This document shows, one piece after another, positions 59,966 through 64,000 of a stretch of DNA of 64,000 bases. The DNA is from Cellulomonas rhizosphaerae (GTDB taxonomy: Bacteria > Actinomycetota > Actinomycetes > Actinomycetales > Cellulomonadaceae). Within the stretch, counting starts at the first letter, position 1. Each line of letters opens with the position of its first letter. The notes under the pieces were generated by a model that saw only the letters and a program-made list of their open reading frames with translations, was not told the origin of the DNA and did not search any database. The stretch covers positions 1 to 64,000 of the forward strand of contig NZ_QWKP01000219.1 in assembly GCF_003470205.1 (NCBI RefSeq), in the 5' to 3' direction. The translations under genes were made by a program, and so were the position numbers.

Positions 59966-60058
59966 TTGAGCTCGTTCGCCACGTTGCTGATGGCCGCGCT
60001 GAGCACCTGCGCGGGTCCCCTGGGCCTCATCGGCCTCTGGCTGGTCACCGCCGTCTGA
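59966..60058 (+). CDS. Possible 30-residue membrane peptide
   Basis: A TTG-initiated ORF encodes a mostly hydrophobic peptide (start SSFATLLMAALSTCAGPLGL, then a second apolar run ending TAV), long enough for one membrane pass. GGAAGGACG lies a few bases upstream and TAGGGT about 60 bases upstream. It overlaps the 3' end of the convergent wall-anchored gene by 14 bases. I know no homologue; the call rests on signals and composition alone. Confidence 0.4.
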   Translation: MSSFATLLMAALSTCAGPLGLIGLWLVTAV

Positions 60059-61556
60059 CGGACCGAGCGCTGGCGGTCGCGCCGTCGGGGGACGCCGCAA
60101 GCCGCCGGCGTGACGCGAGCACCCCGATGCCCGCGAGCAGGAGCAGGAGTGTACCGACGGCCAAGGAGGTCGCGTCACCGCCCGTCGCCGAGAGCTCGCC
60201 CGGTGCGGGTCCGGCCGTGGAACCCGGGGCAGGTTGCCGCGGCGGGCTCGTCGGGCCGGGAGCCGCAGGTGCAGGCGTCGCGGTGGTCGTCGGTGTGACG
60301 GCGGGCGAGCTGGTCGGCGTCCAGGAGGGTGACGGCGAACCGGTCGGCGCGACCGTCGGCGTCGTCGTCGGCGTCGTCGTCGGCGTCGTCGGCGTCGGCT
60401 CGCCCACGGCGGGCTCGACCACGACCGATCCGGTGGCGCTGGCCGAGACGGCCTCCTGCGTCACGTCGGCGCGCCCGTCCACGCGGAACTGCGTGCTGAA
60501 GACCGCCGCCGCTGCACGCACGAGCCCCGGCGCAGGGACGGTCACCGTGCAGGTCAGGAGAGCGGAGTCGGCACCCGGCGCGAGGTCGTCGAGGGCTCCC
60601 CCGGCGCAGCCTGATCCCGACCACGACAGGCCGCCGACGACGACGTCTCCGGTGTTGGTCACGCGCAGCGTCCATGTGACGTCGGCGCCGGCACGGACCG
60701 GGTCGGGCGACCCGGCCACGCTGAGCGCGATCGCCGGGGAGAACGGCACGACCTCGACCGTCGGCGAGGCCGTGGTCCTGACGACGTCTCCCGTTCCCGG
60801 GACCGTGGCCGAGAACGTCACGGCGTCGGTGACCGGTCCTCGGGCGGGGGCGACGGTCGTGCACGTCACCTCGGCGGTCGACGCGCCGGCCGGGAACGGC
60901 CCGGGTTCGTCGTGTCCCGGGCACAGCGTCGACTCCCACCCCGGCCCGACGAGCCTTGCGCCACCGGTGTTCTCGAGGCGCGTGGTCCACACGATCTGCT
61001 CCCCCGGGCGCACGGTCGACGGCTCGCCGTGCACCGATCCGGTGATCGACGTGGACAGCACGGGGACGTGCCCGACGAGTGGGACGACGAGCGTCTGGCC
61101 GATCTCCGGGACGTCGGCGCGGAACGTCGTGGCGTTGGTCACCTCCCCGAAGGCGGGCGCGGTGACCGCGCAGGTGCCGGTCGGCGTCTCCTCCCCCGGT
61201 GCGAAGGGGCCCGCATAGGCCGCATCGCCGCACACGTCGCTCGACCAGCCGATGTTCGTCAGGGCGGTGGTCGAGACCTCGGCGTTCTTGCCCGACATGT
61301 ACCAGGTGACGGTGCCGCCGGGCTCGACCGGGTTCGGGTAGCCGTAGTACGTCGTGTAGAAGTCGCGCACGACGTCGTCGTCGGCGCCCTGTGCCGGGAC
61401 GGCGAGCCCGCACAGGCAGGCCCCGACAGCAGCCGCGAGCACGAGCGCTCGGCACCGTCTCCCGGCGGCTCCCTGCGGGGCTCGCTCCCCCTGCGTCTTC
61501 GTCGTCTCGCCCCCAGACCCGGCTGACTGCCGGCCGAGATCGTCCGTCGGACACAC
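60045..61556 (-). CDS. Wall-anchored protein with repeated beta-sandwich modules
   Basis: The ~503-residue secreted protein has a signal peptide ending near VPAQGA (about residues 36-58), then three DUF11/CARDB-like modules (~60-165, ~166-270, ~271-375) with repeated VTWxxxxxNTG-like strands and paired Cys. A long Pro/Thr/Ser stalk follows, then sorting-type motif LSATGG (from 455), a hydrophobic span and Arg-rich tail. This is a class E-like sortase signal, so display on the wall is likely. The start is uncertain (GTG 61556 taken). Confidence 0.75.
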   Translation of the reverse strand: MCPTDDLGRQSAGSGGETTKTQGERAPQGAAGRRCRALVLAAAVGACLCGLAVPAQGADDDVVRDFYTTYYGYPNPVEPGGTVTWYMSGKNAEVSTTALTNIGWSSDVCGDAAYAGPFAPGEETPTGTCAVTAPAFGEVTNATTFRADVPEIGQTLVVPLVGHVPVLSTSITGSVHGEPSTVRPGEQIVWTTRLENTGGARLVGPGWESTLCPGHDEPGPFPAGASTAEVTCTTVAPARGPVTDAVTFSATVPGTGDVVRTTASPTVEVVPFSPAIALSVAGSPDPVRAGADVTWTLRVTNTGDVVVGGLSWSGSGCAGGALDDLAPGADSALLTCTVTVPAPGLVRAAAAVFSTQFRVDGRADVTQEAVSASATGSVVVEPAVGEPTPTTPTTTPTTTPTVAPTGSPSPSWTPTSSPAVTPTTTATPAPAAPGPTSPPRQPAPGSTAGPAPGELSATGGDATSLAVGTLLLLLAGIGVLASRRRLAASPDGATASARSVRRR

Positions 61557-61804
61557 CGTGCACCGCCAACGTACGACCAGACGCGTCGTCACGGAACAGC
61601 GGGCGTTATCGCACCTGAGCGCCGACGAGCGACGCAGCCCCGCCGAATCCACCCGGACGCACACACCCCACGCTGGTCGCACCACGCTCTTCGGGGGCGC
61701 CGAGGAGACCTTCGTCCCACGAGGACGGCGCCGGCCGGGGGTGTGATGAACAGCCACGGTCGCCCAGACGTCGAGGTCGGGCGGCACGGCTCCTGGAGGA
61801 AGCC
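61557..61804. other. Intergenic region between wall-anchored gene and TasA-like operon
   Basis: This 248-base gap contains a minus-strand TACGTT (61568-61573) suitable as -10 for the wall-anchored gene and GGAGGA (61795-61800) as ribosome site for the TasA-like gene. It is very GC-rich with possible stems, but I cannot match a known riboswitch or a clear plus-strand promoter. Confidence 0.4.
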
Positions 61805-62332
61805 ATGGACGCCCGCAGGTACACGAAGATCGCCGCGATCCCCGCCGGACTTCTCGTCGCCGGGTTGATGATCGGCCAGGCATCCCACGCCGCCTTCACG
61901 GCGCAGACCAGCACGGGTGCGAACTCGTTCACGTCCGGCAGCGTCGCCCTGACCAACAGCAAGGTGGGCACCGACGTCTTCACGGTCACGGGCATCGTCC
62001 CCGGCGCCACCGGTACGAAGACCGTCGACGTCACCTACACCGGCAACCTCGCGGTCGTCGTCAAGATGTACGCGAAGGACGGCGACACCACCGGCGCGCT
62101 CGCGCAGGCGCTGCAGATCACCGTCAAGACCGACGGTTCGCCGATCTTCGCCGGGACCCTCGCCGAGCTCTCGGCACTCACCGCCTGGTCGCAGGGCGTC
62201 GGCGGCTGGGCCCCGACGTCGACCGCCACCAAGCCGTACGAGATCTCGTGGTCGCTGCCTGCGTCGGCAGGCAACACGGTCCAGGGGCAGACCACGGCGC
62301 TCAAGTTCGCCTGGGAAGCGCAGACCAGCTGA
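61805..62332 (+). CDS. TasA/camelysin-like secreted protein with SipW-type signal
   Basis: The 175-residue protein begins MDARRYTKIAAIPAGLLVAG. Its hydrophobic core runs into SHAAFTAQTSTGANSF (27-42), the pattern of SipW-dependent signal peptides, in which an AAF-type start of the mature chain follows the cleavage site. The mature part is a beta-rich domain of ~145 residues ending FAWEAQTS, comparable to TasA/CalY fibre proteins. It is followed 31 bases later by the SipW-type peptidase gene, so the protease and substrate form an operon. GGAGGA precedes the ATG. Confidence 0.8.
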   Translation: MDARRYTKIAAIPAGLLVAGLMIGQASHAAFTAQTSTGANSFTSGSVALTNSKVGTDVFTVTGIVPGATGTKTVDVTYTGNLAVVVKMYAKDGDTTGALAQALQITVKTDGSPIFAGTLAELSALTAWSQGVGGWAPTSTATKPYEISWSLPASAGNTVQGQTTALKFAWEAQTS

Positions 62333-62363
62333 TCCGGACCCACACCACGAGCGGGAGGCTGAC

Positions 62364-63716
62364 GTGCGCGAGCACCACCAGGCGTCGAGCGACGGCTGGC
62401 CGACCACCGTCCGCGTGACCCTCGCGCGGACGGTGCTCGCCACGCTCGCCGGGCTCGCGGTGTGGCCGCTGCTGCTCGCTCTGCTCGGCCTCAACGTCGC
62501 CGCGATCGCGTCCGGCTCGATGTCGCCCGGCATCCGCGTCGGCGACGTCGTCGCGTCCTCTCCCGTGGCGTTCGACGAGGTGCGGGCCGGCCAGATCGTC
62601 ACCGTGCACAACCCGGCCGCCGAGGGTCACCTCCTGACCCACCGCGTGCACGCCGTCCGGGCCGACGGGTCGCTTCTCACCAAGGGGGACGCGAACGCCG
62701 ACGTCGACTCCACGCCCGTTCCCGTCGGGTCTGCGTGGCTGGGTCGGCTCCGCGTCCCGTGGGTGGGCTTCCCGAAGGTGTGGCTCGACGACGGCAGCTG
62801 GGTCGCGCTCGGTGCCGCGGCCGCGGCGCTGGCGCTGCTGGCCCGATGCGCCTCCGACCGGCCGCTCGCACGGCCGGACGAGCGCGGCCGCCTGCGACTC
62901 TCGCCGGCGACGGCCGGTCTCGTGGCCCTCGCGGTGGTCGCCGCACCGCTGAGCGCGGCCCGGAGCGACGCCGCGTTCGCCGCGACGACGAGTACCGGTG
63001 CGAGCAGCTGGACCGTGGCCGGCTCGGCACTCGGCCCCTACGGTGACGCGGTCCTCGCCGACTCGCCGTTCCTGTTCTTCCGGATGGACGAGCAGTCGGG
63101 CGACGTCGTCGTCGACTCCTCGGGCAACGGCCACACGAGCGGCTACCGCGGTTCCCCGACCCGGGACGTCGCGGGCGCGCTCCCCGGGCAGACGACGGTG
63201 AACTCCGCGACGCTCTTCGGCGGCGTGTCCGCGATCGCATCGAGCCGGGTCTACCCGAACACCACCGACTTCACGTTCGAGGCCTTCGTGAAGTCCCGGA
63301 GCTGGGCGGACAACGATGGCACGTCCACGATCGCCGAGCTGCGGACGGCGACGGGCTTCCGCGACCGGATCTTCGTCCAGTACGGAAGCCTGTACTACCA
63401 GGCCGACGAGGCCTCAGCTCCCCTGCACCTGCAGTGGAACATCCCGGGCGACGCGACGTGGCACTACCTCGCGGTCTCGATGTCCGGGGCCTCGGTGACG
63501 ATCCGGATGGACACCTCCGTCTGGCGCGGCACGGTCCCGGGCCGCGACACGGTGACCGCCGCTCGGTTCGTCATCGGCACCCACCTGCAGCCCTACGACG
63601 ATCCCGGCGCGCTGGGCGTCGAGAGCTACAAGGGAGTCATGGACGAGGTCGCCCTCTACACCTACGCACTGACCGAGGCGCAGATGGCGGCCCACCACGC
63701 CGCGTCGCGCGCCTGA
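62364..63716 (+). CDS. SipW-type signal peptidase fused to LamG-like domain
   Basis: The 450-residue fusion has a membrane segment (~26-48) and signal peptidase I core with ASGSMSPGIRVGDVV (Ser52), THRVHAV (His93, the ER/SipW-type base in place of Lys) and KGDANADVD (Asp109). A second segment (~145-160) is followed by a third (~180-198) that leads into SDAAFAATTSTGASSW (201-216), nearly the same as the processing site of the preceding gene. A LamG/concanavalin-like domain (~222-445) follows. GGGAGG lies five bases before GTG 62364. Self-cleavage releasing the LamG domain is inferred. Confidence 0.85.
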   Translation: MREHHQASSDGWPTTVRVTLARTVLATLAGLAVWPLLLALLGLNVAAIASGSMSPGIRVGDVVASSPVAFDEVRAGQIVTVHNPAAEGHLLTHRVHAVRADGSLLTKGDANADVDSTPVPVGSAWLGRLRVPWVGFPKVWLDDGSWVALGAAAAALALLARCASDRPLARPDERGRLRLSPATAGLVALAVVAAPLSAARSDAAFAATTSTGASSWTVAGSALGPYGDAVLADSPFLFFRMDEQSGDVVVDSSGNGHTSGYRGSPTRDVAGALPGQTTVNSATLFGGVSAIASSRVYPNTTDFTFEAFVKSRSWADNDGTSTIAELRTATGFRDRIFVQYGSLYYQADEASAPLHLQWNIPGDATWHYLAVSMSGASVTIRMDTSVWRGTVPGRDTVTAARFVIGTHLQPYDDPGALGVESYKGVMDEVALYTYALTEAQMAAHHAASRA

Positions 63717-63723
63717 CGGTCCC

Positions 63724-63770
63724 CCTCGGCCTCTGCCAACGCGCCGCTGCTCTCGAGCGGCGTGCCGAGG
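63724..63770 (+). terminator. Hairpin after the signal peptidase fusion gene
   Basis: The outer stem CCTCGGC (63724-63730) pairs with GCCGAGG (63764-63770), and the inner stem CGCCGCT (63742-63748) pairs with AGCGGCG (63756-63762). It starts seven bases after the stop and lies before the next gene's promoter. Confidence 0.6.
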
Positions 63771-63806
63771 TTCGGCGAGAGCCACCGAGCGGGCATGATG
63801 CGCGCC

Positions 63807-64000
63807 ATGCATGAAGGTGAAGCCACGATCCCCCGCCGCACCGTCGTCGGGTACGCGCTGGGATCCGTCGGCACGGGCGGGTTCGGGACGCTCCCCGGGC
63901 TCGTGCTCGCCTACTACCTGACCGACACCCTCGGCGTCGCCGCCGGCGTGGCAGGGCTCGTCGTGACCGTGCCGAAGATCTGGGACGTGATCATCGACCC
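63807..64000 (+). CDS. MFS transporter (GPH/MelB-like), 5' end only
   Basis: The first ~64 codons are present: MHEGEATIPRRTVVGYALGS, then GFGTLPGLVLAYYLTDTLG and VVTVPKIWDVIID, the N-terminal signature of glycoside-pentoside-hexuronide (MelB-type) cation symporters, with the Asp after the second helix. The substrate cannot be told. CATGAT (63794-63799) lies seven bases before ATG 63807, a leaderless-like arrangement. The gene runs off the window. Confidence 0.75.
   Translation, partial: MHEGEATIPRRTVVGYALGSVGTGGFGTLPGLVLAYYLTDTLGVAAGVAGLVVTVPKIWDVIID

What the first reader, a model, noticed from the sequence alone, without database searches (positions are those of the whole stretch)
62364..63716. 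Signal peptidase fused to its own SipW-type substrate and a LamG domain
The sequence shows an intact SipW/ER-type signal peptidase core (Ser52, His93, Asp109), a third hydrophobic segment and SDAAFAATTSTGASSW, then a ~225-residue LamG-like domain. The segment from the third helix onward looks exactly like a SipW-dependent signal peptide placed inside the protein. This suggests the enzyme cuts itself (or a neighbour copy) to release the LamG domain outside the cell. SipW-type peptidases cleaving TasA-type substrates are known; a single-chain protease-substrate is, to my knowledge, not well described.
Basis: partly seen in the sequence, partly recalled or inferred. Interest (0 to 1): 0.85.

Follow-up and report, generated by a model that had tools for sequence, protein, structure and literature searches.

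The report
Signal peptidase carrying its own substrate
A bacterial enzyme that normally clips export tags off other proteins here carries its own clippable tag and a sticky surface domain in the same chain, so it very likely cuts itself to release that domain, and relatives in the phylum carry different cargo on the same platform.

Summary
The 450-residue ORF 62364-63716 of a Cellulomonas-type genome has an intact ER/SipW-type signal peptidase (S52, H93, D109, D115), a third helix, a SipW-type cut site (SDA|AF, P1 = A203) and a LamG domain. It starts 31 nt after a stand-alone SipW substrate gene. It is not a one-off: I collected 31 members from sampled genomes of the phylum, 28 with cargo (Pfam: LamG 14, ice-binding-like 7, Ig-like 2, unassigned 5) and 3 that end 17-20 residues after the site. 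In the 26 aligned, catalytic residues and P1 Ala are invariant, P3 is small, and P2' is aromatic in 25. A profile trained only on neighbouring stand-alone signal peptides finds the internal site (window 11.4 bits; 17 of 26). In 7 of 30 other genomes the fusion is the only SipW-type peptidase found; all 7 have a neighbouring substrate. Both AlphaFold2 models show TM3 followed by a strand at 199-202, as expected of a bound c-region. Self-processing is the best explanation; cleavage itself, and cis versus neighbour-copy cutting, are untested. The searched open-access library listed no description of this architecture. New variant of a known kind; interest 0.72.

The parts
61805..62332 (+). Upstream stand-alone SipW-dependent substrate (175 aa; signal ...SHA|AFTAQTSTGANSF)
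   Evidence: TIGR04088 20.3 bits, cut-off 19; own-genome search 23.6 bits
62353..62358 (+). Shine-Dalgarno-like GGGAGG, 5 nt before the GTG start; the gap to the upstream stop is 31 nt (operon)
   Evidence: Sequence; operon is an inference
62364..63716 (+). Whole fusion gene: SipW-type peptidase + internal SipW-type signal peptide + LamG cargo, 450 aa
   Evidence: relatives
62397..62483 (+). TM1 (residues 12-40)
   Evidence: AlphaFold2 model, hydropathy
62490..62756 (+). Catalytic domain (residues 43-131) with S52, H93, D109, D115
   Evidence: TIGR02228 residues 44-140; profile match to human SEC11C, E 5e-16; residues invariant in 26 of 26
62799..62852 (+). TM2 (residues 146-163)
62853..62903 (+). 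Arg-rich loop / n-region (residues 164-180), predicted cytoplasmic
   Evidence: Loop net charge +2; side of the membrane inferred from the positive-inside rule
62904..62954 (+). TM3 = h-region of the internal signal peptide (residues 181-197)
   Evidence: Helix in both models
62958..62972 (+). c-region, residues 199-203 (A-R-S-D-A); predicted cut after A203, before A204-F205
   Evidence: Strand 199-202 in both models; P1 Ala 26 of 26, P2' aromatic 25 of 26
62973..63713 (+). Predicted released cargo, residues 204-450 (247 aa); LamG jelly-roll from about residue 237
   Evidence: Laminin_G_3, residues 292-440, 34.4 bits; LamG-like jelly-rolls among Foldseek hits

Best explanation
The gene encodes a self-processing secretion unit. 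The N-terminal part is an ER/SipW-type signal peptidase held by TM1 and TM2 with its Ser-His-Asp site outside the cell. The chain re-enters the cytoplasm after TM2, carries an Arg-rich n-region, crosses again as TM3 and ends in a SipW-type c-region (R-S-D-A|A-F). The same enzyme, in cis or through a neighbouring copy, cuts after A203 and releases residues 204-450 with the LamG domain, probably as an adhesive or accessory partner of the TasA-like protein made by the gene directly upstream, which the enzyme also processes in trans. Shown here by computation: domains, conservation of the catalytic and cut-site residues, gene order, recurrence with different cargo. Inferred: topology, the cut, who cuts, and the role of the cargo.
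For: Intact ER-type active site: S52, H93, D109, D115 in 26 of 26, related to SEC11C at E 5e-16. Cut site: P1 Ala 26 of 26, P3 A/S/T/V 26 of 26, P2' aromatic 25 of 26; a P2' aromatic is poorly cut by E. coli LepB, and TasA has Phe there (PMC10269814, abstract and introduction). A profile of 22 stand-alone signal peptides hits the internal junction in 17 of 26 at iE < 0.05, 15 of 26 above the best of 1040 shuffles; the best of 39 unfused peptidases scores 0.6 bits. A stand-alone substrate gene lies upstream on the same strand, within 1.6 kb, in 24 of 26 fusions. In 7 of 30 other fusion genomes the fusion is the only TIGR02228 match at E <= 1e-5, so it must be active there if the neighbouring substrate is to be cut. 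Both AlphaFold2 models place a helix at 181-196/197 then a strand at 199-202; Sec11A binds c-region P4-P2 as a strand, with a 5-residue c-region in the high-confidence models of that paper (PMC13385932, passages). The window has no in-frame ATG/GTG/TTG 22-63 codons before the junction, so the LamG domain has no evident separate precursor.
Against: No cleavage data exist. TIGR04088 does not call the internal signal; 9 of 26 junctions gave no hit to the custom profile, and one fusion (L108) also had a weak hit outside the junction, iE 0.028. Members were recognised partly by the A-x-aromatic motif, so conservation at P1 and P2' is biased upward. The loop before TM3, which should be cytoplasmic, is net negative in 8 of 26, and the stretch at the start of TM3 is neutral in 3 of 26. 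Confidence after the cut site is low in the full model (203-212 below 50) and moderate in the short one (blocks of 61 and 53); without coordinates I could not measure whether strand 199-202 lies in the active-site groove. This genome has two other TIGR02228 peptidases above cut-off, so cutting in trans is possible here. Three members have no cargo, so release of a domain cannot be the only function.
Confidence: 0.72

Rival explanations
1. The internal site is cut, but by another SipW-type peptidase in trans; the fused enzyme serves only the upstream substrate.
For: The window's genome has two further TIGR02228 matches above cut-off, one next to its own TIGR04088 substrate. 20 of 30 other fusion genomes have at least one further TIGR02228 match above cut-off.
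Against: In 7 of 30 fusion genomes the fusion is the only match at E <= 1e-5 (in one of them, G669, itself below the cut-off), and in 3 more the only other match is partial and well below cut-off; the junction motif is present in these too. The genomes are 87-100% complete, so a missed gene is possible. Tethering should give the fused enzyme a high local substrate concentration (inference).
Confidence: 0.12
2. The site is not cut: TM3 anchors the LamG domain and the protein is a membrane-tethered adhesin with a peptidase base.
For: TM3 is a plausible anchor (hydropathy); no cleavage data.
Against: An anchor needs no Ala at P1, small P3 and aromatic P2', yet these hold in 26, 26 and 25 of 26 while the loop before TM3 varies from 17 to 95 residues (P1 and P2' partly by selection). 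The same motif ends the signal peptides of stand-alone substrates.
Confidence: 0.1
3. The fusion is a gene-prediction or assembly artefact, or two genes run together.
For: High G+C makes long chance frames common; one relative, G429 (L112), has a run of N in the linker and its frame cannot be followed.
Against: One uninterrupted frame with the same order in 28 genomes, including single-contig ones; no internal start that would separate the parts in the window.
Confidence: 0.02

Closest known systems
Bacillus subtilis SipW with TapA and TasA (tapA-sipW-tasA)
   Same: ER-type peptidase, operon with a TasA-type substrate, Phe at P2' of TasA (PMC4238804 passages; PMC10269814 introduction)
   Different: In B. 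subtilis the substrates are separate proteins; here one substrate is part of the enzyme chain. The Bacillus equivalog model NF046067 scores 37.4 against a cut-off of 190.
SEC11A/SEC11C of the eukaryotic signal peptidase complex
   Same: Catalytic domain and Ser/His/Asp residues align (SEC11C, E 5e-16); best Foldseek match of the N-terminal model is SEC11A 7p2p, E 3.9e-3
   Different: No cargo and no third helix with a cut site (general knowledge); works in a complex.
SpsB-peptide tethering (4WVJ; Ting et al. 2016, PMC4704075, abstract and passages)
   Same: An active signal peptidase cuts a tethered substrate, and the product stays bound as a strand
   Different: Man-made chemical tether on the MBP carrier; P-type Ser-Lys enzyme.
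LexA and lambda CI self-cleavage
   Same: Same superfamily, cleavage segment in the same chain (PMC12984324 passages)
   Different: Soluble Ser-Lys proteins; no membrane, secretion or signal peptide (general knowledge).
Self-cleavage of P-type signal peptidases (recalled, not read here)
   Same: A signal peptidase cuts its own chain
   Different: As recalled, those cuts lie in the enzyme and inactivate it; here the cut lies after a complete signal peptide and would free a cargo domain.

Membership tests
ER/SipW-type type I signal peptidase (TIGR02228) | Model score above curated cut-off | tested here: met
   54.5 against 51.85 bits
ER/SipW-type type I signal peptidase (TIGR02228) | Ser and His (not Lys) plus Asp in the active site | tested here: met
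   S52, H93, D109, D115 invariant in 26 of 26; aligned to SEC11C
ER/SipW-type type I signal peptidase (TIGR02228) | TM1, external catalytic domain, TM2 | tested here: inconclusive
   Helices predicted; side of the membrane only inferred
ER/SipW-type type I signal peptidase (TIGR02228) | Peptidase activity | not testable with these tools
   No assay available
Bacillus SipW equivalog (NF046067) | Score above cut-off | tested here: not met
   37.4 against 190 bits; works like SipW but is not that equivalog
SipW-dependent-type signal peptide (TIGR04088) | Model score above cut-off | tested here: not met
   No hit at E <= 1 on the fusion
SipW-dependent-type signal peptide (TIGR04088) | Similarity to stand-alone SipW signal peptides of the same operons | tested here: met
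SipW-dependent-type signal peptide (TIGR04088) | P1 Ala, small P3, aromatic P2', basic n-region | tested here: met
   A203, S201, F205; net charge +2 in the 12 residues around the start of TM3
SipW-dependent-type signal peptide (TIGR04088) | Position at the N-terminus | tested here: not met
   Internal, residues 181-203
LamG / Laminin_G_3 (PF13385) | Score above gathering cut-off | tested here: met
   34.4 against 27.6 bits

The most novel reading that the evidence does not exclude
A family of self-processing secretion units: a SipW-type peptidase with a built-in signal peptide used as a cut-and-release platform on which cargo is swapped in evolution (LamG, ice-binding-like, Ig-like, others). 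After the cut, the tethered c-region may stay in the active-site groove, as a tethered product did in SpsB, so that the built-in substrate also gates or limits the enzyme. The three members whose chain ends 17-20 residues after the cut site would then keep only this gating role, or release a short peptide.
Probability: 0.25. Interest if true: 0.87.

Novelty: new variant of a known kind. Interest (0 to 1): 0.72.

Why it matters
If it cuts itself, this would be a natural single-chain signal peptidase and substrate. It would give a tethered system in which cis cutting, product release and P2' specificity of ER-type enzymes can be measured, it ties one cargo molecule to one enzyme molecule, and it suggests how matrix or adhesin operons gain new surface domains by exchanging cargo. 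It would also mean that actinobacterial genes likely to be named only 'signal peptidase' (inference; annotations were not checked) are secreted surface proteins as well.

Tried and rejected
Profile queries to the genome search (alignment A2) failed three times with a machine error; single-protein queries were used instead, so the census is a lower bound. TIGR04088 as a test for the internal signal failed, hence the home-made profile. Internal-start idea (separate LamG precursor) rejected for the window: no in-frame start 22-63 codons before the junction; not tabulated for all relatives. Long LamG proteins of the family search were read as possible donors of a ready-made signal-LamG unit: in 9 of 9 loci read, the frame stays open at least 500 codons upstream of the match, to the edge of the fetched stretch, so the match is not behind a signal peptide. 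L096, L103, L104 and L105 were fetched as possible fusions; no fusion junction was found in them. L112 (G429) was set aside because of a run of N in the linker. The plasmid collection gave one partial match only. Promoter and terminator scan: none found in 61500-64000. Foldseek hits of the full model to botulinum neurotoxin binding domains reflect the jelly-roll lectin fold shared with LamG and are no sign of a toxin. The model outputs give no coordinates, so docking of residues 199-202 could not be measured.

Full report
OBSERVATION. The ORF 62364-63716 (+) is a 450-residue protein with a GTG start, a GGGAGG ribosome-binding-like site at 62353-62358 and a gap of 31 nt to the stop of the gene before it. 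TIGR02228 scores 54.5 bits (cut-off 51.85) over residues 44-140 and Laminin_G_3 34.4 bits (cut-off 27.6) over 292-440. The gene upstream, 61805-62332, is a SipW-dependent substrate by TIGR04088 (20.3 bits, cut-off 19) with SHA|AFTAQTSTGANSF.

RELATIVES. One named relative, Cellulomonas sp. Leaf334, has the same order at 61% identity; its contig has the same length as that of G062, listed as 'same genus'. I then searched sampled whole genomes: 221 of the family, 149 of the order, 246 of the class and 246 of the phylum; the samples overlap, and only loci returned or fetched were read. New members found: 11 (family, window included), 6 (order), 9 (class), 5 (phylum): 31 genomes. These are lower bounds. 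Reading rule: peptidase motif, then a hydrophobic segment, then A-x-(aromatic or Met); fusions without such a motif would have been missed, so the counts at P1 and P2' below carry that bias, those at the catalytic residues and P3 do not.

CARGO. Pfam assigns the cargo of 23 of the 31: Laminin_G_3 in 14 (window; L007/L086, L008/L087, L101, L106, L108, L109, L110, L111, L113, L114, L115, L116, L117), Ice_binding PF11999 in 7 (L012/L089, L013/L090, L014/L091, L017/L092, L018/L093, L094, L095), Big_7 in 2 (L102, L107); 5 have cargo without a Pfam match (L097, L098, L119, L121, L126); 3 end 17-20 residues after the cut site (L088, L099, L100). By eye L098 carries a TasA-like domain after the site.

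JUNCTION. In the alignment of 26 (A4) 15 columns are invariant, among them S52, H93, D109, D115 and A203. P3 is A 15, S 7, T 2, V 2; P2' is F 22, W 2, Y 1, M 1. The loop between TM2 and TM3 varies from 17 to 95 residues; its net charge is negative in 8 of 26, but the 12 residues around the start of TM3 are net positive in 23 of 26 and neutral in 3. An independent test: a profile from 22 stand-alone signal peptides found upstream, with no fusion junction in it, hits the junction in 17 of 26 fusions at iE < 0.05; 15 of 26 exceed the best of 1040 block-shuffled sequences (7.7 bits); the window scores 11.4 bits. In 39 unfused peptidases (of 45 chosen, 6 gave no ORF) five hits appear, all at 0.6 bits or less and in TM1 or TM2. 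Against: nine of 26 junctions gave no hit, and L108 also had a weak hit elsewhere (iE 0.028). Of the 5 phylum-level members, not used in building the profile, 2 hit at E < 0.05, one of them above the shuffle maximum.

OPERON. A stand-alone SipW-type substrate lies upstream on the same strand within 1.6 kb in 24 of 26 (22; L100 and L101). Exceptions are L093, where none was found, and L098, where it lies about 4 kb away on the other strand. In the 5 phylum-level loci it is upstream in 3 and downstream in 1; in L126 none was found, but its contig ends about 0.2 kb upstream.

WHO CUTS. In the window's genome there are two other TIGR02228 matches above cut-off, one beside the only other TIGR04088 substrate above cut-off, so trans cutting cannot be excluded there. 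In the 30 other genomes, 20 have at least one further match above cut-off; 7 (G231, G486, G522, G627, G664, G669, G717; completeness 89-100%) have the fusion as the only match at E <= 1e-5 (G669's own match, 47.8 bits, is below the cut-off); and 3 (G280, G396, G763) have besides it only a partial match of 27-32 bits. In these 7 the fused enzyme is the only SipW-type peptidase found, and all 7 have a neighbouring stand-alone substrate. General P-type peptidases are poor candidates: E. coli LepB cuts sites with an aromatic P2' badly (PMC10269814, abstract and introduction).

STRUCTURE. AlphaFold2 on the full protein (25 sequences; pLDDT 77.2, pTM 0.55) and on residues 1-224 (26 sequences; pLDDT 84.7, pTM 0.78) both give TM1, catalytic domain, TM2, TM3 (181-196/197) and a strand at 199-202, that is P5-P2. 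This is what a bound c-region looks like: in Sec11A the h-region is helical and c-region P4-P2 is strand-like, with five residues before the cut in the high-confidence models (PMC13385932, passages), and in SpsB a tethered substrate is cut and kept as a parallel strand (PMC4704075, abstract and passages). I had no coordinates, so the partner of strand 199-202 is not known; confidence falls after it (ten-residue mean 85 up to residue 200, then 61 and 53). Foldseek matches the N-terminal model best to SEC11A (7p2p, E 3.9e-3, none below 0.001), and the full model to LamG-like jelly-rolls such as neurexin.

EVOLUTION. A tree of 26 fused and 39 unfused peptidase domains puts the 26 fused ones together with 11 unfused on one side of a 99/92 branch, 28 unfused on the other. 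LamG as a label is clustered (6 changes; shuffled mean 11.2), yet well-supported branches force at least 4 changes. So the cargo was gained, lost or exchanged more than once. The window's nearest kin are L086, L087 and the cargo-less L088 (98/99). The unfused rows were best hits of the same searches, not an even sample.

MECHANISM. Best reading: a self-processing SipW-type peptidase that releases the LamG domain and also serves the substrate upstream. Shown by computation: parts, conservation, gene order, genomes with no second enzyme found. Inferred: topology, the cut, cis or neighbour copy, role of the cargo. In Bacillus, SipW serves TasA and TapA, which are separate proteins, and has a second role in surface-adhered biofilms (PMC4238804, passages); by analogy the fused cargo may be an accessory or adhesive partner of the upstream TasA-like protein.

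IN PRINT. Searches of the held open-access library: signal peptidase with LamG and SipW (0 papers); SipW, signal peptidase, fused (16, all listed); at least two of SipW-dependent, signal peptide, actinobacteria (1,207, 15 listed); at least three of signal peptidase, laminin G, fusion, self-cleavage (44, 10 listed); at least two of signal peptidase, self-cleavage, SipS (93, 12 listed); signal peptidase with LamG (5); with ice-binding and DUF3494 (0); SipW, bifunctional, biofilm (48, 8 listed); TasA, SipW, homologs, archaea (8); SipW with actinobacteri- (17, 15 listed). No title or abstract start that I saw describes this architecture. Beyond listings I read only the parts of papers cited above, and passages of PMC12445088 and PMC4049620 that added nothing. 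Subscription papers and database notes were not searched.

Noticed in passing
60045-61883 (-): Divergent gene for a 612-aa protein with weak DUF11/DUF7507 repeat matches and a sorting-signal-like C-terminus (LSATG, helix, RRR), next to the SipW operon.
   Followed up: no
L002 (G000:C82), 580-2097: A second SipW-type system in the same genome: a TIGR04088 substrate directly followed by an unfused TIGR02228 peptidase.
   Followed up: partly
L088, L099, L100: Peptidases that keep TM3 and the A-F/W cut site but end 17-20 residues later; what the site is for there is unexplained.
   Followed up: partly
L097, L100, L106, L116: A second stand-alone SipW-type substrate lies downstream of the fusion as well as upstream.
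   Followed up: no
L112 (G429), 161-1767: Peptidase and signal-LamG parts lie in different frames across a run of N in a TEP-type repeat linker; assembly gap, frame unknown.
   Followed up: partly
L050, L055: Unfused peptidases with an extra C-terminal domain of about 80-90 residues without cut site, by eye; nature unknown.
   Followed up: no
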